Below are positions 11,851-21,547 of a stretch of 64,000 nucleotides of DNA, one piece after another (within the stretch, counting starts at the first letter, position 1; the number at the start of each line of letters is the position of its first letter). The stretch comes from Tomocerus qinae (Eukaryota; Arthropoda; Collembola; Entomobryomorpha; Tomoceridae), in NCBI GenBank assembly GCA_020055645.1, contig CM034547.1, forward strand, positions 15,594,513 through 15,658,512, in the 5' to 3' direction. Below the pieces are notes generated by a model. That model made no database searches, had not been told where the DNA came from, and saw only the letters and a list, made by a program, of their open reading frames with translations. Both the position numbers and the translations under genes were made by a program.

Positions 11851-12319
11851 TGTAACGATCTCTGCCACCGTTGAATGCAGTAGAGACCTTACTATTAAAT
11901 TGCTCAGGGATTACGGTCCATAATATGAGCTCCCCAGATAGTTCTCTTAATGATTCTTTACCAAATACTAATAATAAATAATATGTAATGAGTACCAAAC
12001 CAGAATGCAGCCGATGTCCAGATGAATCCAATAAAACGGGAATGACAACAGGAAATTATGAACACAAATATTACTTTACTACATGAGAATTCAACTCAAT
12101 CTTTGTATCACATAATCAGACTTATTAGTGAATGTAATTGTTCCTGTTAAACACAACAAGATCCCAAAAGGAAGGTTCAGCCCAAACGCAGGCTAAAGAG
12201 CAACTGGAGATTCCCTCGTAGATTCCCGTGAAGTCCTTCTTGTCCAGTTAGTGGGAGTTGGGTGGCACTTCTCCATGGTGTCGTAGTAGTAGTAGTATGT
12301 CGTTATAGCTATCGCTATA
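11851..12319 (-). repeat. 3' LTR
   Basis: This 469-base copy matches 21075-21543 base for base as far as I can read. On the plus strand it starts TGTAACGATC and ends GCTATA, so in element sense it runs TATAGC...TTACA. It contains a short (TAG)n run near its outer U3 end. The stop codon of the third coding module falls in its first bases. No clear AATAAA was found in element sense, so the polyadenylation signal is unassigned. A roughly 60-codon open frame inside the LTR is present in both copies and has no recognised domain. Confidence 0.95.
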
Positions 12320-14311
12320 CTCTTCCCCCCTTTGAACTCCCCCCTCTGAAGTACGATGTAGGGTGATGATGATGTCCTTTGTTCCGGTCTCCTCTGTAGT
12401 GTGATCTCGATTGACGATGATCTCCTTGTTTTGTGGTTTCTTCTCGTTTTGGATGTTGACAATAATGTCTTTGTTTCAGTGCTGTTATCTCCTTGTTTAA
12501 TTGATACAATTTATGCTTCATCTGTCTCATCCTATAAGCTTGTGGATGATTATTCTTGACATATTGCCGTTGTAGTGAAGTTTGTCTCTCATTAGTACAG
12601 AATTTCCTTAAATGACCCGGTGTTTGACATTTTGTGCATGTTCTTGTCTCCAACGGATCTGGTCCCTCCGGTAGTGTATTTTCCGGTGGTCCTTGTAGAA
12701 TTTCCACTTCCATTGGTTCATGTGGTAATTGAATCTGTAACGGTTCATTCTCTCGAACATGGACGATTCGTCTTTGCTGTAGTGGTAACTCCATTGAACG
12801 TGATTGTGATTTTTGTACTTGAGGCATGGTAGTTGTCAATGGTTTCTGCACTATGTTAGTAGTGGAAGTAACTTTATGTGGTGGTTGAAACATTGGACGT
12901 TGTGGTGAACTAAATTCATTGTTGGATATGTTCAACGTAATTGTATCCGTCTCCCACGATTCCTCTTCTTCCATCCGTTTCCATTCGGCGATTTTCGCGG
13001 CGATGATGTCTCGATATCCTGTCTTCGGTTGTTGAGTAGTCGAACTAGACACTGTTTTCGCAGACTTTATCACTTCCGTTAAATCTTTTAGATACTGAAT
13101 GAGATTGAGATCCGAGAACGTTCTGAGTGTTTGTTTGACCTCTTCTTCAGTTGTTGGCTTCCTCTTGGCAAGTTGTAATAACGCATCGAAGGATGCAATG
13201 GTTTTAATGGACTCGTCTTGAGTTTTTGCCAAGTTGTATCTCCAGGCGTATAAAGCATTATAAACCATTCGGTTTTCGACTGGAACGTACTTATAATGAT
13301 TTTCTTTGGCTGGTTCTGGTGTCACATTGAACTTGTAAACTACGGAGGCTGTTCTCTTGGATTCTTCAAATGGGCGAAAAGGTGATTTCCCAGTTTCACA
13401 TCTTGCACAAGCTGCGGTGACCTTGCCGTAAACTTTAATCCAAGCCTTCATAAGAAGTTTTGTGTCGTCCATAGCATATATTTCTTGTCGTTTTGCCAGC
13501 GGTCGATTCCTCCAGTCGGAGTACGTGCAGATTTCATCCGGTTTCCAGTTATTTTTGCCCAGTACTTCCTTGATCATTTTGGTGAATGACATTTGTTGGG
13601 GATGTCCCAAATAGGTGCAAATGTGCTGGAAGTCAATCAGTCCAGTGATGAAGATGTTGTAGTCTCGTTGTAAGTGGCGTACATCGTTGTCGGTTCCATG
13701 TCCCAGTTTAATTATCTTGGGATCCTCGAAGATGTCCTTCAGTTCGGTGGTGATGAATTCCAAGATTTCATCCGGAAAGGGTCTATCATGTAGGTCTTCC
13801 CTACAGTAGATATCTGAATGAGTGAGTTCATTCCGTGAAAACTGTGGTCTTGGTGATCTTCCATGTCAAATGCAAAGATTGACACTTTCTTAAGATGACT
13901 TGCCATTTTCTTTGCGGTGATGATGTCGTCGACCCAGGTATCTCTGTATTTGTTTTCGTGTGTCGGTTTTAGCATGTCGATACTAGGTTTCCAATCCTGT
14001 ATGATTCGTTTTCTCGGGTTCCTTGTGTACGGAAAAGCCTCGTAGTTGTTGAGGTTTCTCCTCAATTCCTTGAGTTTGTCGTTGACATCTTGCGGCTTTA
14101 CTGTAGTTACCCCGATCTGAGCAGTAGCTTTTGCCTTTTTGGTGTGAAAGGAGTCGCAAGGTTGAATCGGTAGCATGTAATTTATTGACCGATTCAGTGA
14201 CGATGTTGGTACATTACGATTCTTCCGCGTGAATTCGGATGTCTGTGGTTTCCGGTGACGATCGATTGTCTTATTAACCCGGTACATCTGTAGAAGATAG
14301 TGTTCACACAT
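12315..14311 (-). CDS. third module: Rrp6/EXOSC10-like DEDDy 3'-5' exoribonuclease + HRDC + CCHC
   Basis: This module lies between pol and the 3' LTR, the slot used for env in errantiviruses. In order it shows a basic N-terminal part; exonuclease motif I (FAFDMEDH, near 13867, D-x-E); a following GMNSLIQIST, as in EXOSC10 GLTCLMQIST; motif II (HGTDNDVRHLQRD, near 13700); and motif III (WRNRPL...YAMDD, near 13478, Tyr-x3-Asp). All five DEDDy metal/catalytic positions are visible. An HRDC-like domain follows (about 13280-13059, with LYAWRYNLAKTQDES like EXOSC10 LFAWRDKTARREDES). Then come a Gln/Pro/Thr-rich linker, a zinc knuckle CTKCQTPGHLRKFC (12638-12597), a possible coiled coil and an Arg/His/Gly tail. 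In cells, Rrp6 trims nuclear RNAs with the exosome; a role here in RNA processing or in evading small-RNA silencing is inference. There is no signal peptide or membrane segment, so it is not an envelope. The region is a fossil-type element part and may not be fully intact. Confidence 0.92.
12320..12349 (-). promoter_or_regulatory. polypurine tract, doubled
   Basis: In element sense, AAAGGGGGGAAGAG lies directly before the 3' LTR. A second purine run, AGAGGGGGGAG, lies a few bases upstream, separated by TTC. The tract next to the LTR is the expected primer for plus-strand DNA synthesis. It is also coding: it supplies the last Lys-Gly-Gly-Arg codons of the third module. Whether the upstream run is also used as a primer is unknown. 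Confidence 0.85.
14286..14302 (-). promoter_or_regulatory. splice-acceptor-like site before the third module
   Basis: In element sense the sequence CTATCTTCTACAG is followed directly by ATGTACCGGG. That is a pyrimidine-rich stretch, an AG, and an ATG in the frame that opens the exonuclease module. Ty3/gypsy errantiviruses and retroviruses express env from a spliced RNA that joins a leader donor to an acceptor just before env. The same layout fits here. Several GT-containing donor candidates exist in the leader but none is decisive. Confidence 0.45.
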
Positions 14312-14737
14312 TAGGATGCTTATACATGGGAATGTTCATTACCCCTCCATCGGTGTGAGGCATGGGATAATGTTTTCTGAATGGAGTGAATTGCATGCGT
14401 AGTCCATTACCCCTCCATCCATATAAAGTACTATTAAAATGGTTTGCATGAGTATTTTTCATTACCCCTCCATCCGTATAGCGTTTAAAAGTGGATATTT
14501 TCCACTATAAGTGGGATTTTAGCTGATGCTGATTGTATGTATTATGACTGATGGTGATATGTATTTATCTATAATCATGTAGAGTATTCTTCAAGTGTAT
14601 CTAAGTGGTACTTGTTATTGTGTTGAAGTGTTCACACTTTTTTATTATTGCCAATTGGTTCTTATGTCTAAGTTATATTCATATCTTAATCTATAGGACG
14701 GTAACTATATATATACATGGGACTGATGGTGCGGGAA
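14312..14737 (-). repeat. pol-to-third-module spacer with three 15-base motif copies
   Basis: On the plus strand, CATTACCCCTCCATC occurs at 14337-14351, 14405-14419 and 14460-14474, spaced 68 and 55 bases apart. In element sense each reads GATGGAGGGGTAATG. The rest of the spacer is AT-rich and non-coding. The leader at 20674-20685 carries the motif core in the opposite orientation, so the two RNA regions are complementary. The function is unknown. Confidence 0.8.
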
Positions 14738-17700
14738 TTAGAAAAATTTCGAATATTCCCCTGGCACGTAAGTGTGACGTTTAGGTTTAAGGGTGGGTAG
14801 TTGCGCTAATGTTTTCTTCGATTTCTTGGGAATGGTGACTGATTGTAGTGGAATTTTTGAAATATCTTGTGGTTTTGGAATTTTGAGGTATAATTTTGGA
14901 GGTATTTTAAGGCGCTGAAAATAGGGTTTCAAATCAGAGACATGGCGTTTCCCAATTGATTTCTTCGTCTCTTTGTCGTAAATTTCGTATGTTACTGGCG
15001 TAATCTGTTTCTTGACTATAAATGGTCCTTTCCAAGCTGGTGCTAACTTCTGTGAAAAGTTAAGCGATGCATCTGAGAGTACATGATTTCTGACGAGAAC
15101 AAGTTGATCAACTTCGTAAGAGACTTGTCGATGATGTTTATTGTAGTCATCTTGGTATGAAATCTGTGCTTCAACGATGTTATCTCGTACCCAGTTAATA
15201 ATATCAACTAACTGCGTTGGTAATTCTGACAGTTTCTCTCTTGCTGCTTCAAAATCAATTTCTCTGGAGTCGGTGATAGCTCGATCAAAGGGTAAAGCAA
15301 TTTCTCTTCCTAAGTTGAGTAGGGCTGGACTAACTTGTGTAGTCTCGTGTACGGCTGATCGTAAGCCAAGACCAAAAAGTTGTAGGTATTCGTCCCATTT
15401 TGAATGCTGTCCCTCGATGAAACATTTGATCATAGTCTTCAGAGTTTGATTGACTCGTTCCACTTGATTGGGTTGTGGATGATAGATGCTTGTGAATTTG
15501 TGTGTTATGTTCCATTCTTTACAGAGTCGCGTCAATTTCTTCGAAATGAATTGAGCCCCGTTATCCGAAACAAGAATCTTCGGTGCTCCGAAATGGCAAA
15601 AAATCCATTCCAACCAATACTTAAGTTGCGTAGACGTAGCCGCTCGCATAGGGATCAACTCAACCCATTTAGACAATTGATCCTGGACCACCAATAAATA
15701 CTTGTTCAATCGACCTCCTGCACTCGTTGGCAAGGGCCCCATAAAATCAACAAATATCGTATGAAATACTGCAGGTGCTGATTCGGCAATTCCCATCAAC
15801 CCCGCTTTCCGTTGCCGTGAAGTCTTCACTTTTTGACAAACCGAACATGTTTTGATATAATCTTTCACATCCTTTACAATAGTAGGCCAATATGCTCTTG
15901 ACCTAATCCAATTCAACGTTTTTCTGATGCCCAAATGACCCGCTTGAGGTACATCATGAAATTGAAACAAAATATCTTGTCGCAATTTCTCTGGAATATA
16001 TGGAAGTAAATGTTTAAATGGCCGATCTAAATCACAGTCAGCCTTCTTCAATCGCGAAGTATTACTCCCAACTTTAAATATTTCCATATCTTCCTTCAAA
16101 TCTTCAACATTTCTATTTTCCAACTCTTCATCAGTGTTACCGCGTGCACTCGGCTTTCCAACACTCTTCTTTTTCATCATCTCTTCTCTAGGCTTTGGTG
16201 CATTTCCAATAACCCTACTGACATCTGTAGAATTTCCTACTTTTCTTGATGCAGCGTTTTTCTTTAACTGTTCTAAACATTCCGGTTGAAGTCTTTCTCT
16301 TCGAACCTTACTGCCAACTATGGAATTTCCCACCTTTCTTGTTGCAGTCTTACTCTTCAATTCAACGTTACAATTTCCACTTCGTTTCTGGTTATGAACG
16401 CTGTGTACATCAGCTTCACTCCCCTTCACTTCCAAATCTTCACCTTCCGAACTCTTTCTTCTCCAATTTACATCCATAACTTTATATATGACTTGATTTT
16501 TGTAGACGTACTCAGAGTTATTCGTGGCCATCGAACTTCCCTTTAACGACTTCAAAATTTTATTACATTCCTCATCATTTTTCTGCTCTTGTCGAATCTT
16601 TTTCAAATCTGGTCCTTTGAACATTAATCCAAAACATGGTACAAACATGACATCAGGGTCTTCTTCTACAAAGTTAGATTCCGTTCCACTTGGCTGAACT
16701 GGAGCTCGCGACAACGCGTCCGCTATCACATTATCCTTTCCCGCTATGTGTCGAATCTTATCCAAATAGGGTTGTAATCTCAATGCCCATCTTCCAAGTT
16801 TGGAGTTGTTTTCCTTGTTCTTCTGCAAATACTGTAGAGGTTTGTTATCTGTTAGAATGAAGAATTCTTCTCCCCATATATAATCGTAAAATTTTTCAAT
16901 TGCCCATAAAATGGCTAATAGTTCCTTTTCACAAGCGTGAAGTTTTGTTTCCACTGGTTTTAGAAGTTTGCTTGCAAATTGAATGATCTTCTCTTTACCG
17001 TCTATGTTCTGAGTTAATACTGCTCCTAATCCATTTCCTGAAGCGTCGCATTTAATTAAAATGGGATGGTCGTAATCAATTCCATTCAATACAGTATGTT
17101 CACATGTAAGAGATTTCAATTTGTCGAATGCGTCTTGTTGTCTCTTTCCCCAATACCATGAAGTATTCTTCCGGAGTAGTTCGTTCAATGGTTCTGCAAT
17201 GGTTGCAAAATATGGAAGAAATGCTTGTAAAAACAATATCTTCCCGAGAAATCTCCTAATATCGTTGGTATTCTTCGGAGTCGGATATTCATTTATTGCT
17301 TTGACTTTCTCTGGATCCATGCTGATTCCTTCTGAACTTATGACATGTCCCAAGAATGATATTGACGTTAATCCAAATTGACATTTTTCTCTGTTAACCG
17401 AAATGTTCGCTTCCTTAAGTCGTTCTAAGATGATTTCCACATGTTTATAGTGATCTTCAAGAGTTTGTGAAAAAACGATAATGTCGTCGACGAAAACAAA
17501 TGCAAAGTTTCCAATTAATCCTTCTAAAACTTTGTTCATCAGTTCGCAAAAAGTTTTTGGAGCATTCTTCAATCCAAAAGGCATAACTAAAAATTCGTAG
17601 AGCTGTCCATCTTCTGTAAAAGCTGTCTTCTCTATACTTTCTTCGTCCATTAGTACTTGCCAATATCCCGAATCTGTGTCAAACTTCCCAAATCGAGCTG

Positions 17701-18571
17701 CTCTTGGTAGTACTCGTAGTATGTGGTGACTGTTGTGCATTGGAGTTCGATTAGGTCTTGTTATACTATTTAATTTCTTGTAGGCAATACACATCCGATG
17801 TTTTCCATTCGGTTTCGGTGCAAGAACTGCGTTAGAGTTATATGGAGATTGCGATGGTCGAATTAATCCTCGCTGTAATAAATCATCTGTTTGTCTTTTA
17901 ATTTCTTCTGCCATTTTTCTTCCTGGTCTTCTATACGGAGTATATACTGGTGGACCCGGTGCATCTATGTGATGTTTTACTACATTGGTTCTTCCAAGTG
18001 TTTTGTTCTTTCCTGATACCGTAGGATATTTGTCCAACAGGTCGTCGAACATTTTCTTTATATCTTGATCTGTTACTGTCTTCACATGATTAAAGTTGAT
18101 TGCAAATAGGTATTTCCTTGGACTTTTGTTTATTATGGCGTATGGTCTTTGTTCTTTGTCGTCTTTAAACCAAAAACTGTTTCCATTAAAGTGTAATATC
18201 ATATCTGAAGTTTTAATTAAATCTAATCCAATAATTACAGGTACTGCTAATTTTTCCATGACATAAAATGAATGTGTGATTCTCTTGTGTCCCAATTGAA
18301 TTTCCAAAGTTAATTTTCCAATAGGTGTGACTTTTTGTCCATCTGCTATAGTAAGTGATTTCGAATTGCATGGTTCTATCCGCTTCGCTAATTTTTGAGC
18401 AAAAGATTTTCTGATAATCGAAAAGTCGGATCCCGAATCAATAAAAGAAGGAGTTACTGTAGCCGTGTCGTTAAAGAATACTGAAATTGCCGATAATTTT
18501 TGATTTAGTTCGTCGTTCTTAATGGGAAGACAGAGATCTGGGTAGAATTCCCCCGCCTCCCCGTTTAGTCG
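14738..18571 (-). CDS. pol: Pol: protease, reverse transcriptase, RNase H, integrase
   Basis: Pol makes DNA from the element RNA and inserts it into the host genome. The frame is open without an ATG from the gag end and is reached by a -1 frame change. In order it shows: aspartic protease FIDSGSDFS (near 18439) with VIIGLDL further on; reverse transcriptase with MPFGLKNAP and the catalytic FVDDIIVFS (near 17490); RNase H with KCDASGNGLGAVL, TDNKPLQYL and ADALSR; a Lys-rich insert (about 16024-16460); integrase zinc finger HDVPQAGHLG...CSVC (near 15958-15836); integrase DDE core with VDFMG, VSDNGAQF and NQVERVNQ (15748, 15565, 15460); and a C-terminal GPY/F-like KGPFIVKK segment. The order integrase-last marks Ty3/gypsy rather than Ty1/copia. 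About 1190 residues lie after the first part of the protease, slightly long because of the insert. No chromodomain follows the GPY/F region. Confidence 0.95.
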   Translation of the reverse strand, partial: RLNGEAGEFYPDLCLPIKNDELNQKLSAISVFFNDTATVTPSFIDSGSDFSIIRKSFAQKLAKRIEPCNSKSLTIADGQKVTPIGKLTLEIQLGHKRITHSFYVMEKLAVPVIIGLDLIKTSDMILHFNGNSFWFKDDKEQRPYAIINKSPRKYLFAINFNHVKTVTDQDIKKMFDDLLDKYPTVSGKNKTLGRTNVVKHHIDAPGPPVYTPYRRPGRKMAEEIKRQTDDLLQRGLIRPSQSPYNSNAVLAPKPNGKHRMCIAYKKLNSITRPNRTPMHNSHHILRVLPRAARFGKFDTDSGYWQVLMDEESIEKTAFTEDGQLYEFLVMPFGLKNAPKTFCELMNKVLEGLIGNFAFVFVDDIIVFSQTLEDHYKHVEIILERLKEANISVNREKCQFGLTSISFLGHVISSEGISMDPEKVKAINEYPTPKNTNDIRRFLGKILFLQAFLPYFATIAEPLNELLRKNTSWYWGKRQQDAFDKLKSLTCEHTVLNGIDYDHPILIKCDASGNGLGAVLTQNIDGKEKIIQFASKLLKPVETKLHACEKELLAILWAIEKFYDYIWGEEFFILTDNKPLQYLQKNKENNSKLGRWALRLQPYLDKIRHIAGKDNVIADALSRAPVQPSGTESNFVEEDPDVMFVPCFGLMFKGPDLKKIRQEQKNDEECNKILKSLKGSSMATNNSEYVYKNQVIYKVMDVNWRRKSSEGEDLEVKGSEADVHSVHNQKRSGNCNVELKSKTATRKVGNSIVGSKVRRERLQPECLEQLKKNAASRKVGNSTDVSRVIGNAPKPREEMMKKKSVGKPSARGNTDEELENRNVEDLKEDMEIFKVGSNTSRLKKADCDLDRPFKHLLPYIPEKLRQDILFQFHDVPQAGHLGIRKTLNWIRSRAYWPTIVKDVKDYIKTCSVCQKVKTSRQRKAGLMGIAESAPAVFHTIFVDFMGPLPTSAGGRLNKYLLVVQDQLSKWVELIPMRAATSTQLKYWLEWIFCHFGAPKILVSDNGAQFISKKLTRLCKEWNITHKFTSIYHPQPNQVERVNQTLKTMIKCFIEGQHSKWDEYLQLFGLGLRSAVHETTQVSPALLNLGREIALPFDRAITDSREIDFEAAREKLSELPTQLVDIINWVRDNIVEAQISYQDDYNKHHRQVSYEVDQLVLVRNHVLSDASLNFSQKLAPAWKGPFIVKKQITPVTYEIYDKETKKSIGKRHVSDLKPYFQRLKIPPKLYLKIPKPQDISKIPLQSVTIPKKSKKTLAQLPTLKPKRHTYVPGEYSKFF

Positions 18572-18577
18572 TTTAAA
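18524..18577 (-). promoter_or_regulatory. -1 ribosomal frameshift site, gag to pol
   Basis: In element sense TTTAAAC (18577-18571) sits in the gag frame as T TTA AAC, the classic X XXY YYZ slippery heptamer and the same one that coronaviruses use. Gag ends two codons later, and the -1 frame is the open pol frame. After an 8-base spacer comes GGGGAGG, which can pair, with one G-U, with CTTCCC at 18529-18524, a plausible stimulatory stem. Programmed -1 frameshifting is a known gag-pol route in this family. Confidence 0.85.
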
Positions 18578-19993
18578 GACTCGTAGTATTCTTCTTCATA
18601 TTGATATTGTGGATCATTGATCCATTCTTCTTCGTTGTCTTGAATGGCCATAACTCTGCCATTACCAGTGTCCTGACAGTAGCGCTGTATGTGGCCTTGC
18701 TTTCCACAACCGTAACATGTTGGTCCAGACCGTTGTCTCTGGTATTGTCCATTTCCATTCCAATTGTTCTGATAATTATTATTTTCAGTACTCATGCTTG
18801 GTCTCGCATTGTTGTTTTGTTGTACTGGAGGCTGATTTTGTTGCGGTTGCTGATTCCCCGCATTCGCTTGTTGCTGGTTGTTCTGATTCCCTTGTTGTTG
18901 CTGTTGATTTTGAGGCTGGTAACCGCCTTGGGGTTGCCCCTGTCTATCATTTCCTCTAAAATTCGGTCTTCCGTTTCCTCTGAAATTTCCTCTACCTCGG
19001 AAGTAATTATTTCGTCCGCGGAATGTTCCTCGGCCACGAAATGTTCTTCCATTTCCTCTATTCTGTCCATTAGTCTTGACCTGCACTCCCGCATCCTGTG
19101 GTAAAGAATTTGCTATACCATCCTTTGCGTCTTGTGCCCGTAGATCTTCTACTGCAGCTTTAGCTCGTTCAATAAGATTTACTATGGTGTAGTTCCCAAT
19201 TTCTCCCATTGCTACTTTAATCCTAGGTAACAATGCTTGTCTACATCTTCTTACTGACTCTGCTTCTGCTTCATTGGGGAAAACTTGACGTGTTAATCGC
19301 AACATGTCCCATACAAATTTTTCCACATTTTCCTTCTCCCCCTGAACTCTTGACATCAAGTGCTGAGTCCTTTTGTTTCTCTCAATCCAGGTATCATATT
19401 TCGCAATGAATGCATCTTTAAAATCGTCCCATGTCCAGTCTTCTTGTCTCACATGATTGAACCAAGCTTTGTTTTCTTTTATAAGAATAGTTGATAACAT
19501 GTATAGCCATTGTTCCCTTGCATATCCTTGACTTGTATAGTATGCTTCAATATCCTGTAGATAGCTTGCCGGTGTTGTTTCAAATGCGTTGTACTTGGGA
19601 ATAGGAACATTGATATTCCCAGGTATAAATTGTCTCTTGAATATGCATGACGTTATCATTCCGATTTGCCTGTTGTCGAAAATGAGCTATGATTTGAGCT
19701 TGTTGTTCTGGAGGTAAGTTAAATCTTATCGCTTCTGGGAGTTGATTACCCTGCATTCGTCCCGCACCGTTTGGTGGAGCTTCCTCTGCATTTTGTCCGT
19801 CCATTGCTATATAATACTGAAATAGTTGCCCGTTCCTTGAGTTGCTTGCTGCTCTGCTTCGACTTCCCCTTCTTCTGGCTAATGCGCGTCGCGCTATTCT
19901 TTCTTGTTGATGAGCTTGATGCTCTGGGTCGTGTCTTCTTTGGAATCTTGCTCTTCTCTCTATATTTTCTCTACTCTCTGAAGTACTGCTCAT
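18565..19993 (-). CDS. gag: Gag: capsid-like region and CCHC nucleocapsid
   Basis: Gag packages the element RNA into virus-like particles. The N-terminal part is short, very basic and Arg-rich. The middle part has the helix-rich look of Retrotrans_gag capsids (WTWDDFKDAFIAKYDTW, with GEKENVEKFVWDMLRLTRQVFP after it). The C-terminal part has an RG-box stretch (FRGRGTFRGR, FRGRGNFRGN), a Gln/Asn-rich run, and one zinc knuckle CYGCGKQGHIQRYC of the CX2CX4HX4C type. The end is acidic (EEEYYESLND) and overlaps the pol frame at the slippery site. Identification rests on the capsid-like segment, the knuckle and the position before protease. The 5' part is covered less cleanly than the rest. Confidence 0.9.
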
Positions 19994-20190
19994 CTATCTA
20001 AAATGCTATTGACTAAACTATTCAAATTCTTAACGTCTCTAGACTTCCTCTGCCCAGACTTAAAATTCAAATGTTAAAATGGGAAATGAAAATGTTAATT
20101 TCGTTACTAGCCAATCGCAGCAAGTCGTTGATTAGTCAAACACTCTTGTAGGTCAACGAATTCTTTATCGCAAGAAGTTAAAATAATAAA

Positions 20191-20385
20191 ATGCCAACTG
20201 CACACAGCTAGCTTTTTCTTGGTAAATATGTAAAAGCCAATTGTACACAACTAGCAGCTAAACTCAGCGTCTTACTTATGTAAATGCCAGTTAAACTCTA
20301 CTAGCAGCTATATCTTTAGCTTGATACTGTGAATGTCAGTTGAACGCACTACTGACTGCTAAACGTAGCGATTTACGTATTACAC
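20191..20385. repeat. diverged tandem repeats in the leader
   Basis: Four copies of a roughly 43-50 base unit start near 20191, 20234, 20284 and 20333. Each begins with a form of ATGCCAACTG (AAGCCAATTG, ATGCCAGTTA, ATGTCAGTTG), is followed by a form of CTAGCAGCTA, and then by TTACGTA/TTATGTAA-like sequence. The copies are well diverged, so the array is older than this insertion. Tandem leader repeats in Ty3/gypsy elements can bind host proteins (the gypsy insulator is one case), but nothing here shows that. Confidence 0.6.
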
Positions 20386-20653
20386 GCAGATAAACAAATT
20401 AGGTGGTGATATTCAGAAATATTCGTCTCTATGCCGATAAAACGATACCAGCTAACACACTAATTATGCTGCCAACCATACACGGCTAGCTATCACTGCA
20501 CAATTTTATATTCCAACTAATCTTAGCTAGATGTCTACAATTACCCGATAAGGAAATTATTTGTGTGTATATGTATATGTAAGTTGTGTTATGTACCTTG
20601 ATGTTTGATGGTGATATGTCTTTGTCTTGTATCCGGCCAAGTTGTCTGTGAAG

Positions 20654-20697
20654 GTGTAATGGCAATCCAATGTGGAGGGGTAATGGGAATCCAATGT
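20654..20697. repeat. short direct repeat in the leader
   Basis: GTGTAATGGCAATCCAATGT (20654-20673) is followed by GGGTAATGGGAATCCAATGT (20678-20697), an imperfect duplication. The join creates the GGAGGGGTAATG word that is complementary, in element RNA, to the three spacer motifs. Confidence 0.75.
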
Positions 20698-21051
20698 ACA
20701 CGAATACAATTAAGTCCACGGCGCCAATGCAATTTACATATACTACTGAGACAAAGATATAGGTATTAGTTCCAACTTATATATCGATTTCCTTCGAAAT
20801 ATTTCTCCGAATTTCTTCAAAATTTCAGACACAGTATCAAAATTTTAACAATACATTTATATATTCTTGCTTGAAAAATTCTGCTCTTTACGTTAAAATT
20901 AATTTCATATCAATCAGATAATAATTAGCAAGTAAAATCATATACTCGCATAGTGTAAAATAATATTATTACACGTAATCTTTTCAATAAAATTCCCAAA
21001 ATCAATGGTTTAGTGATTATTTATTACGTTTTCCGGTGAAAGAATCAATTA

Positions 21052-21069
21052 AGACCGGGATCGGCACCA
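21052..21069 (-). promoter_or_regulatory. tRNA primer-binding site
   Basis: In element sense, TGGTGCCGATCCCGG lies five bases inside the 5' LTR. The plus strand therefore reads CCGGGATCGGCACCA, the form of a tRNA 3' end with CCA. This is where minus-strand DNA synthesis would start. I could not match the tRNA species with confidence. Confidence 0.8.
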
Positions 21070-21074
21070 AAATG

Positions 21075-21543
21075 TGTAACGATCTCTGCCACCGTTGAAT
21101 GCAGTAGAGACCTTACTATTAAATTGCTCAGGGATTACGGTCCATAATATGAGCTCCCCAGATAGTTCTCTTAATGATTCTTTACCAAATACTAATAATA
21201 AATAATATGTAATGAGTACCAAACCAGAATGCAGCCGATGTCCAGATGAATCCAATAAAACGGGAATGACAACAGGAAATTATGAACACAAATATTACTT
21301 TACTACATGAGAATTCAACTCAATCTTTGTATCACATAATCAGACTTATTAGTGAATGTAATTGTTCCTGTTAAACACAACAAGATCCCAAAAGGAAGGT
21401 TCAGCCCAAACGCAGGCTAAAGAGCAACTGGAGATTCCCTCGTAGATTCCCGTGAAGTCCTTCTTGTCCAGTTAGTGGGAGTTGGGTGGCACTTCTCCAT
21501 GGTGTCGTAGTAGTAGTAGTATGTCGTTATAGCTATCGCTATA
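21075..21543 (-). repeat. 5' LTR
   Basis: This is the promoter-proximal LTR of the element, 469 bases, identical by eye to 11851-12319. It starts TGTAACGATC and ends GCTATA on the plus strand. Identity between the two LTRs implies a recent insertion or recent gene conversion. Confidence 0.95.
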
Positions 21544-21547
21544 CATC
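21544..21547. repeat. target-site duplication, right copy (CATC)
   Basis: CATC follows the 5' LTR directly and matches 11847-11850. Read as ACATC with the LTR one base shorter, the duplication is 5 bases. Confidence 0.75.

What the first reader, a model, noticed from the sequence alone, without database searches (positions are those of the whole stretch)
12315..14311. LTR retrotransposon carrying an Rrp6/EXOSC10-like exoribonuclease in the env slot
The third module of this Ty3/gypsy-type element encodes a DEDDy 3'-5' exonuclease with all three motifs (FAFDMEDH; HGTDNDVRHLQRD; YAMDD), an HRDC domain in the same order as Rrp6/EXOSC10, and a retroviral-type zinc knuckle. The match runs across the whole fold, for example MNSLIQIST against EXOSC10 LTCLMQIST, and the HRDC start LYAWRYNLAKTQDES against LFAWRDKTARREDES. 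I know of no described LTR element with this enzyme. Capture of a host exosome nuclease could serve RNA maturation, removal of antisense or small RNAs made against the element, or RNA quality control during packaging; these roles are inference.
Basis: partly seen in the sequence, partly recalled or inferred. Interest (0 to 1): 0.93.

Follow-up and report, generated by a model that had tools for sequence, protein, structure and literature searches.

The report
Retrotransposon clade carrying Rrp6-type RNase
A jumping-gene element in this genome carries its own copy of an RNA-trimming enzyme of the Rrp6/EXOSC10 type, and a whole clade of its relatives has kept that enzyme under selection; one similar case was known from rotifers, so it is a new and richer variant of a known oddity.

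Summary
The minus strand of window 11851-21544 is a young Ty3/gypsy element with identical LTRs (470 of 470 nt). Behind pol lies a third gene: DEDDy 3'-5' exonuclease, HRDC domain, CCHC knuckle, basic tail. Here the gene is frameshifted; three of the four other near-identical copies read through. A DEDD exonuclease lies just 3' of integrase at 29 of 31 integrase places in the host genome with 50% or more identity to this one, 14 of 15 at 44-49%, 5 of 31 at 41-43%, 0 of 27 below. Nuclease and integrase trees share 7 of 8 splits. Catalytic residues are complete in 26 of 27 element sequences; dN/dS is about as low as in pol. Pol-less gag-plus-nuclease elements keep the enzyme. The host's own EXOSC10 is a separate gene nearer to human and yeast Rrp6, so the capture is old. 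New here: Rrp6 identity with HRDC, clade-wide co-descent, gag-nuclease elements, a candidate splice site. The role, trimming element-bound RNA in the Gag particle, is inference.

The parts
21075..21544 (-). 5' LTR of the element
   Evidence: 470 of 470 nt identical to the other LTR; likely 4-nt target duplication CATC on the outer sides, by eye
21055..21069 (-). primer-binding-site-like stretch starting TGG, 5 nt inside the LTR
   Evidence: read from sequence; tRNA not identified
19583..19993 (-). gag, N-terminal frame
   Evidence: open frame; no Pfam match of its own; gag is one open frame of 490-531 codons in 12 loci of related families
18565..19686 (-). gag, C-terminal frame, with CCHC knuckle
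   Evidence: Retrotrans_gag E 6.2e-6; CCHC; window gag lies in two frames
14738..18595 (-). pol: protease, RT, RNase H, integrase; 1285 codons open; -1 frame relative to gag
   Evidence: Pfam; frame from the coordinates
14285..14305 (-). candidate 3' splice site (CAG at 14288-14290) directly before the predicted ORF3 start codon (14285-14287)
   Evidence: YAG within 4 nt of the ORF3 ATG in 7 of 12 families; prediction, no RNA data
13739..14335 (-). ORF3 first part (Rrp6-like N-terminal arm and ExoI motif)
   Evidence: PF01612 E 4.8e-6; both parts lie in one open frame in L011-L013
12315..13865 (-). ORF3 second part: ExoII, ExoIII, HRDC, linker, CCHC knuckle, basic tail
   Evidence: PF01612 E 9e-16, HRDC E 2.2e-9
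13446..13936 (-). DEDDy exonuclease domain, frameshifted in this copy
   Evidence: catalytic D, E, D, Y, D in the open copies of the family L011-L013
13068..13268 (-). HRDC domain
   Evidence: PF00570 E 2.2e-9
12591..12644 (-). CX2CX4HX4C zinc knuckle of ORF3
   Evidence: below cut-off here; CCHC pattern in 10 of 13 ORF3 sequences
12321..12330 (-). polypurine tract GGGGGGAAGA next to the 3' LTR
   Evidence: read from sequence
11851..12320 (-). 3' LTR

Best explanation
ORF3 is a working accessory gene of a Ty3/gypsy clade: an element-borne Rrp6/EXOSC10-type 3'-5' exoribonuclease with a retroviral-type RNA-binding tail. Shown by sequence: domains, position, co-descent with integrase, purifying selection, kept catalytic residues, retention by pol-less gag-plus-nuclease elements. 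Inferred: it is made from a spliced, env-style mRNA; its CCHC knuckle and basic tail hold it on element RNA together with Gag; there it removes or trims 3' ends of RNA in the element's own particle (readthrough or poly(A) tails, or foreign and antisense RNA paired to the genome), which helps reverse transcription in cis.
For: Association: a PF01612 match lies within 4.5 kb 3' of integrase at 29 of 31 places with 50% or more identity, 14 of 15 at 44-49%, 5 of 31 at 41-43%, 0 of 27 at 40% or less. 17 of 20 fetched loci of 8-10 kb match all of gag, PR, RT, RH, IN and nuclease. Co-descent: 7 of 8 splits shared for 11 family representatives, Mantel r 0.84, 0 of 2000 permutations as high. Selection: 13 nuclease pairs with dS over 0.05 have dN/dS 0.08-0.29, against 0.06-0.28 for 7 pol pairs (other pairs under evidence against). 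D, E, D, Y, D kept in 26 of 27 element sequences. Gag-nuclease elements: L041 and L031 match gag and nuclease and give no match to PR, RT, RH or IN at E 1e-3; in L041 direct repeats 5.6 kb apart bound them; nuclease dN/dS 0.14 for L031/L032 over 493 codons; their Gag lacks the CCHC that the related autonomous Gag (L042) has, while the nuclease keeps one. Splice site: YAG within 4 nt of the ORF3 ATG in 7 of 12 families, background 14.6%, p 6e-4.
Against: No RNA, protein or activity data. Cis action in the particle rests on two pol-less loci (L031, L032/L041) plus two more places with like frames that were not fetched. In L031/L032 the nuclease has dS 0.26 but gag 0.05 with dN/dS 0.50, so these copies look like mosaics. 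Three nuclease pairs with L023, whose tail is out of frame, give dN/dS 0.28, 0.41, 0.58; five pairs with dS under 0.05 give 0.13-0.65, and three such pol pairs 0.29-0.86. The window copy is broken and yet its LTRs are identical, so a broken copy was mobilised or it broke very recently; supply in trans is possible. The knuckle is absent in 3 of 13 ORF3 sequences (L030, L036, L038). The 12 families in the splice-site count are not independent, and 5 of 12 lack the site. Donor-like leader sites scoring 9.5 or more were found in families A to D; the window family's best scores 7.7 and L030's 7.5. For the rotifer ORF3s the authors report no significant departure from neutrality (passage).
Confidence: 0.45

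Rival explanations
1. Counter-defence: ORF3 degrades or trims host small RNAs (piRNA-like) or antisense transcripts made against the element.
For: Nuclease distances are about 2.5 times integrase distances over 11 family representatives, as expected for a protein in an arms race; known nucleases of this superfamily act in small-RNA paths (recalled: Nibbler, mut-7).
Against: A diffusible suppressor would help all elements alike, so pol-less elements need not keep it; yet they do. ORF3 is closest to Rrp6, not to mut-7 (206 against 74 bits). No small-RNA data.
Confidence: 0.25
2. The enzyme acts on DNA: it trims or proofreads 3' ends of element cDNA before integration.
For: Related DEDDy enzymes (WRN) act on single-stranded DNA (PMC5408684, passage); a reverse-transcribing element has DNA 3' ends.
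Against: Rrp6 is an RNA enzyme (recalled) and is the nearest family by a wide margin; a CCHC and basic tail fit RNA at least as well.
Confidence: 0.1
3. ORF3 is kept only as an RNA-binding or packaging protein; the nuclease fold is a scaffold.
For: CCHC in 10 of 13 ORF3 sequences and a basic tail in most of them; inactive DEDD derivatives that bind RNA exist in the piRNA path (PMC5408684, passage).
Against: All five catalytic residues are kept in 26 of 27 element sequences, among proteins that share as little as 21% with the reference.
Confidence: 0.1
4. Self-limitation: the enzyme lowers element RNA and so copy number.
For: Low copy number of the window family (5 near-identical places).
Against: Such a brake should be lost by faster variants; it is kept throughout the clade. 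The same objection is made in PMC5408684 (passage).
Confidence: 0.05
5. Host pseudogene caught once in this copy, no function.
For: The window copy is frameshifted.
Against: Clade-wide presence, purifying selection, open frames in relatives.
Confidence: 0.01

Closest known systems
DEDDy-exonuclease ORF3 of bdelloid rotifer LTR retrotransposons (Juno, Vesta) and Athena/Terminon retroelements (Rodriguez et al. 2017, PMC5408684)
   Same: RNase D-like DEDDy 3'-5' exonuclease as third ORF behind pol of LTR elements; TE copies closer to each other than to cellular homologues; a shared pool of such ORFs suggested. The authors also note a Cys-His-Cys zinc motif in the Vesta2 and Vesta5 DEDDy ORFs.
   Different: There: pol of these families carries a dUTPase, DEDD is changed to DEED, acquired at least twice, family-specific, HRDC not mentioned (0 occurrences), no departure from neutrality reported. 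Here: no dUTPase match in the window's pol, DEDDy intact, HRDC, a CX2CX4HX4C knuckle in most families, clade-wide co-descent with integrase, purifying selection, gag-nuclease elements. Their sequences are not in the tools, so kinship was not tested.
Rrp6/EXOSC10 of the RNA exosome
   Same: N-terminal arm, DEDDy exonuclease and HRDC in the same order; best structure matches
   Different: No PMC2NT match in 10 ORF3 proteins; gains a CCHC knuckle and basic tail; separate clade from human, yeast and the host's own EXOSC10
env of retroviruses and errantiviruses
   Same: Slot between pol and 3' LTR; candidate 3' splice site at the start codon
   Different: No 19-residue window reaches 1.6 on the Kyte-Doolittle scale in 13 of 13 ORF3 proteins (highest 1.58); enzyme fold instead
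Gag-only non-autonomous LTR elements (recalled)
   Same: gag kept, pol lost, LTRs present
   Different: Here the nuclease is kept together with gag

Membership tests
Ty3/gypsy LTR retrotransposon | two LTRs | tested here: met
   470 of 470 nt identical
Ty3/gypsy LTR retrotransposon | gag, then PR-RT-RH-IN in this order | tested here: met
Ty3/gypsy LTR retrotransposon | primer binding site and polypurine tract | tested here: inconclusive
   both read by eye; tRNA not identified
Ty3/gypsy LTR retrotransposon | place among named Ty3/gypsy clades | not tested
   no named reference elements in the tools
Rrp6/EXOSC10 | DEDDy exonuclease with all catalytic residues | tested here: met
   26 of 27 element sequences and L033; L016 lacks its first motif
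Rrp6/EXOSC10 | HRDC domain after the exonuclease | tested here: met
   over the Pfam cut-off in 4 of 10 ORF3s (L012, L018, L015, L030), in L032 and in the window; found below the cut-off in the other six (L019, L022, L016, L028, L029, L025)
Rrp6/EXOSC10 | N-terminal PMC2NT domain (recalled) | tested here: not met
   no match at E 0.1 in 10 ORF3 proteins
Rrp6/EXOSC10 | falls inside the cellular Rrp6 clade | tested here: not met
   elements plus L033 and L046 split off with support 98/100; only human, yeast and host Rrp6 stood for the cellular side
Rrp6/EXOSC10 | binds the RNA exosome | not testable with these tools
   none
Bdelloid DEDDy-ORF3 elements | DEDDy ORF behind pol | tested here: met
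Bdelloid DEDDy-ORF3 elements | dUTPase in pol, DEED motif | tested here: not met
   no dUTPase match in the window's pol; residues; compared with the text
Bdelloid DEDDy-ORF3 elements | sequence kinship of the ORF3s | not testable with these tools
   rotifer sequences not held
env-bearing retrovirus-like element | transmembrane glycoprotein in the third ORF | tested here: not met
   no 19-residue window at or above 1.6 in 13 ORF3 proteins, highest 1.58 (threshold recalled)

The most novel reading that the evidence does not exclude
A whole Ty3/gypsy clade lives with its own private exosome-type nuclease as a standing part of its particle: a chimera of Rrp6 and a retroviral knuckle, made from an env-style spliced mRNA, acting in cis on packaged RNA, indispensable enough that elements which gave up pol kept gag and this enzyme; stand-alone Rrp6-like genes of the same lineage (L033, L046) would then be copies taken back by the host or carried by other mobile DNA.
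Probability: 0.35. Interest if true: 0.8.

Novelty: new variant of a known kind. Interest (0 to 1): 0.62.

Why it matters
It suggests that the rotifer case is not a curiosity of one group: a retrotransposon lineage can fix a cellular RNA-decay enzyme as a core gene over deep divergence. The selection on it, and its retention with gag where pol is lost, make the question of what a mobile element gains from its own 3'-5' exonuclease open to direct test (activity, RNA targets, particle content). It also warns annotators: single-frame 'EXOSC10-like' genes in such genomes may be mobile-element genes.

Tried and rejected
Rejected: one-copy pseudogene. Rejected: env. Rejected: recent capture of the host EXOSC10. 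Dropped: long-range pairing between the leader and the pol-ORF3 gap. The window family has three 13-14-nt complementary stretches to one leader site; the 14 other loci show only single matches of 11-13 nt to various places, one of them (L030, 11 nt) upstream of gag; several of these loci do not hold the whole leader. Led nowhere: the protein collection gave 5 and 8 proteins, two named ribonuclease D and the rest unnamed; IMG/VR, no relative; phages, no match. Not resolved: whether the L035-L038 nucleases form one clade with the other elements when L033, or L033 and L046, are left aside (AU p 0.13 and 0.28). Not answered: whether the hAT transposase beside L033 goes with other nuclease copies, and which places the L033 protein matches. 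The host species is not known to me.

Rows dropped before counts: one search used 74 of 89 rows (15 second pieces of the same gene) and 104 of 107 rows (3 second pieces or fragments); one search used all 106 rows and the same 104; one search used 57 of 135 rows. One search used 28 of 30 loci with a nuclease match (L014 and L027 dropped as too short); one search used 22 of 26 loci with an integrase match there (L015, L018, L024, L034 too short; the other four loci, L016 and L031-L033, had none).
Full report
What is there. The finding lies in a Ty3/gypsy element on the minus strand. Two identical LTRs (470 of 470 nt) at 11851-12320 and 21075-21544 bound it. [quoted passage not shown] Behind pol, after a gap of about 0.4 kb, comes the third gene. 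Its pieces score as DNA_pol_A_exo1 (E 9e-16 and 4.8e-6) and HRDC (E 2.2e-9), followed by a CCHC knuckle and a basic tail. In the window the gene is split over two frames. Of the four other near-identical copies in the genome, three (L011, L012, L013) have it as one open frame and one (L014) is also broken.

It is Rrp6-like, not just any DEDD nuclease. Searches of solved structures with single ORF3 proteins put Rrp6 or EXOSC10 first in 4 of 4 cases: L012 (93 bits against 37 for RNase D and 29 for WRN), L028, L030 and L032. The stand-alone protein L033 does the same. A profile of 13 ORF3 proteins scores 194-206 bits against Rrp6/EXOSC10 catalytic chains, 82 against RNase D, 74 against mut-7 and about 60 against WRN and Egalitarian. 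The match includes the arm before the exonuclease and the HRDC domain. The PMC2NT domain of cellular Rrp6 (name recalled) was not found in 10 ORF3 proteins.

It belongs to a clade, not to a copy. I searched the host genome (334 Mb, unnamed) with the window's integrase and with PF01612 (all 118 candidates scored), and asked at which integrase places a nuclease lies within 4.5 kb downstream on the same strand. The answer is 29 of 31 for integrases with 50% or more identity, 14 of 15 at 44-49%, 5 of 31 at 41-43% and 0 of 27 at 40% or less. Of the three misses at 44% or more, C1:51230405 has a nuclease about 6 kb on, C1:25088806 has a weak EXOSC10-like match (E 9e-6) 0.7 kb on, and C3:100580 has none. 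An earlier count with the ORF3 protein itself gave 28 of 31, 14 of 15, 4 of 31 and 0 of 27. The integrase search scored 106 of 845 candidates, so distant elements are under-counted. One place from the neighbouring clade (L047) has no nuclease behind integrase but a 170-codon frame with a CCHC knuckle.

Of 20 loci of 8-10 kb taken around nuclease hits, 17 match all of gag, PR, RT, RH, IN and nuclease in order; L020 lacks RT and PR, L022 shows only integrase and nuclease, and L016 only gag and nuclease. Of 10 more divergent loci, 7 have integrase 5' of the nuclease, two (L031, L032) have gag and nuclease, and one (L033) has a hAT transposase fragment beside it.

It has travelled with pol and is under selection. 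Trees of nuclease and integrase for 11 family representatives share 7 of 8 splits; path lengths correlate (r 0.84, 0 of 2000 permutations as high), with nuclease paths about 2.5 times longer. Codon comparisons give dN/dS 0.08-0.29 for 13 nuclease pairs with dS above 0.05, against 0.06-0.28 for 7 pol pairs. The three nuclease pairs with L023, whose tail is out of frame, gave 0.28, 0.41 and 0.58. Five nuclease pairs with dS under 0.05 gave 0.13-0.65 and three such pol pairs 0.29-0.86; they rest on few changes. Two more sets agree: 0.14 for L031/L032, and 0.12-0.17 for L035/L036/L037. The five catalytic residues are kept in 26 of 27 element sequences and in L033; L016 has lost its first motif by a deletion. 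In 13 proteins that share 21-35% with the first, D197, E199, D258, Y327 and D331 are among the 13 invariant columns.

Gag-plus-nuclease elements. L041 (C4:7965900-7973100) has two direct repeats of at least 300 nt, 99% alike, 5609 nt apart. Between them lie a 531-codon gag and a 580-codon nuclease with DEDDy, HRDC and CCHC (read in L032, part of the same stretch), and no match to protease, RT, RNase H or integrase at E 1e-3. L031 is a second copy, and two places with 579-codon frames on C3 and C5 look alike (not fetched). Their Gag has no CCHC, though the Gag of a related autonomous element (L042, of L040) has one. Between L031 and L032 the nuclease has dS 0.26 but gag only 0.05 with dN/dS 0.50, so the copies may be mosaics. 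L016 is a separate and shorter gag-nuclease derivative, with repeats 100% alike 3.3 kb apart and a cut nuclease. Elements that must borrow pol from others but keep gag and the nuclease suggest that the nuclease works in cis with Gag; this is inference.

How it may be expressed. In 7 of 12 families a YAG lies within 4 nt of the ORF3 start codon (4 of 12 directly before it), with 8-13 pyrimidines in the 15 nt before it, against 14.6% and 3.9% of other ATGs in the same loci (p 6e-4 and 9e-4; the families are related, so these p values flatter). Donor-like sites scoring 9.5 or more occur in the upstream parts of families A, B, C and D; the window family's best scores 7.7. This points to a spliced ORF3 mRNA like that of env. 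ORF3 itself has no 19-residue stretch at or above 1.6 in 13 of 13 proteins; the highest is 1.58.

Origin. The host has its own EXOSC10 gene on C4 near 9.055 Mb: four matched pieces, 41-62% identical to the human protein, with a GT-AG intron between the first two. Those two pieces are 57% identical to yeast and 56% to human Rrp6, 28-46% to the element nucleases and 39-42% to RNase D. In the tree they sit with yeast and human, while all 27 element nucleases plus two stand-alone Rrp6-like genes (L033, L046) form another clade with support 98/100 (the host row fills 48% of the columns). So this was not a recent capture from the present host gene. One acquisition at the root of the clade is the simplest reading; whether the L035-L038 group belongs to the same event is not settled.

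Comparison with print. Rodriguez, Kenefick and Arkhipova 2017 (PMC5408684; I saw the abstract, passages and sections 3.1-3.4) describe DEDDy exonuclease ORF3s in the bdelloid families Juno and Vesta and in Athena elements, acquired at least twice, with DEDD changed to DEED and a dUTPase in pol. They suggest a shared pool of such ORFs, note a Cys-His-Cys zinc motif in Vesta2 and Vesta5, and report no significant departure from neutrality. HRDC is not mentioned in that text. A review repeats the case (PMC5718144, passages), another names DEDDy exonucleases in Terminons (PMC6431247, passages), and PMC6338049 mentions a DnaQ-like exonuclease domain in LTR elements (one passage). I found no report of an Rrp6/EXOSC10-HRDC ORF3 or of gag-nuclease elements in the listings of seven searches of the paper library; that library lacks most subscription journals.

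Verdict. The function is not shown. My best reading is trimming of element-bound RNA in the Gag particle (0.45), ahead of counter-defence against small RNAs (0.25).

Noticed in passing
window 14338-14480 and 20674-20688: The gap before ORF3 has three copies of GGAGGGGTAATG and the leader one reverse complement (13-14 nt); no like set of matches in 14 other loci.
   Followed up: partly
L033 607-1764 and 3299-4246: Stand-alone Rrp6-like gene of 386 codons, DEDDy and HRDC (just under the Pfam cut-off), 1.5 kb from a hAT transposase fragment; by eye a short intron may lead to an exon with a knuckle-like stretch.
   Followed up: partly
L046 31-1326; PF01612 places with frames of 381-431 codons: Eight stand-alone Rrp6-like open frames of 381-431 codons without a listed integrase 5' of them: a possible second mobile or domesticated family. 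Two of the eight, L033 and L046, were read.
   Followed up: partly
L045 503-1545 and three places on C1 and C4 with the same score: Another repeated, broken exonuclease copy (181-codon piece) with no listed integrase or RT nearby.
   Followed up: no
L047 926-1438: A neighbouring Ty3/gypsy clade without the nuclease has a 170-codon frame with a CCHC knuckle behind integrase.
   Followed up: no
L017 3745-4237, L018 3748-4058, L023 6387-6641: Tandem repeats of 32 or 73 bp fill much of the gap between pol and ORF3 in families A and B.
   Followed up: no
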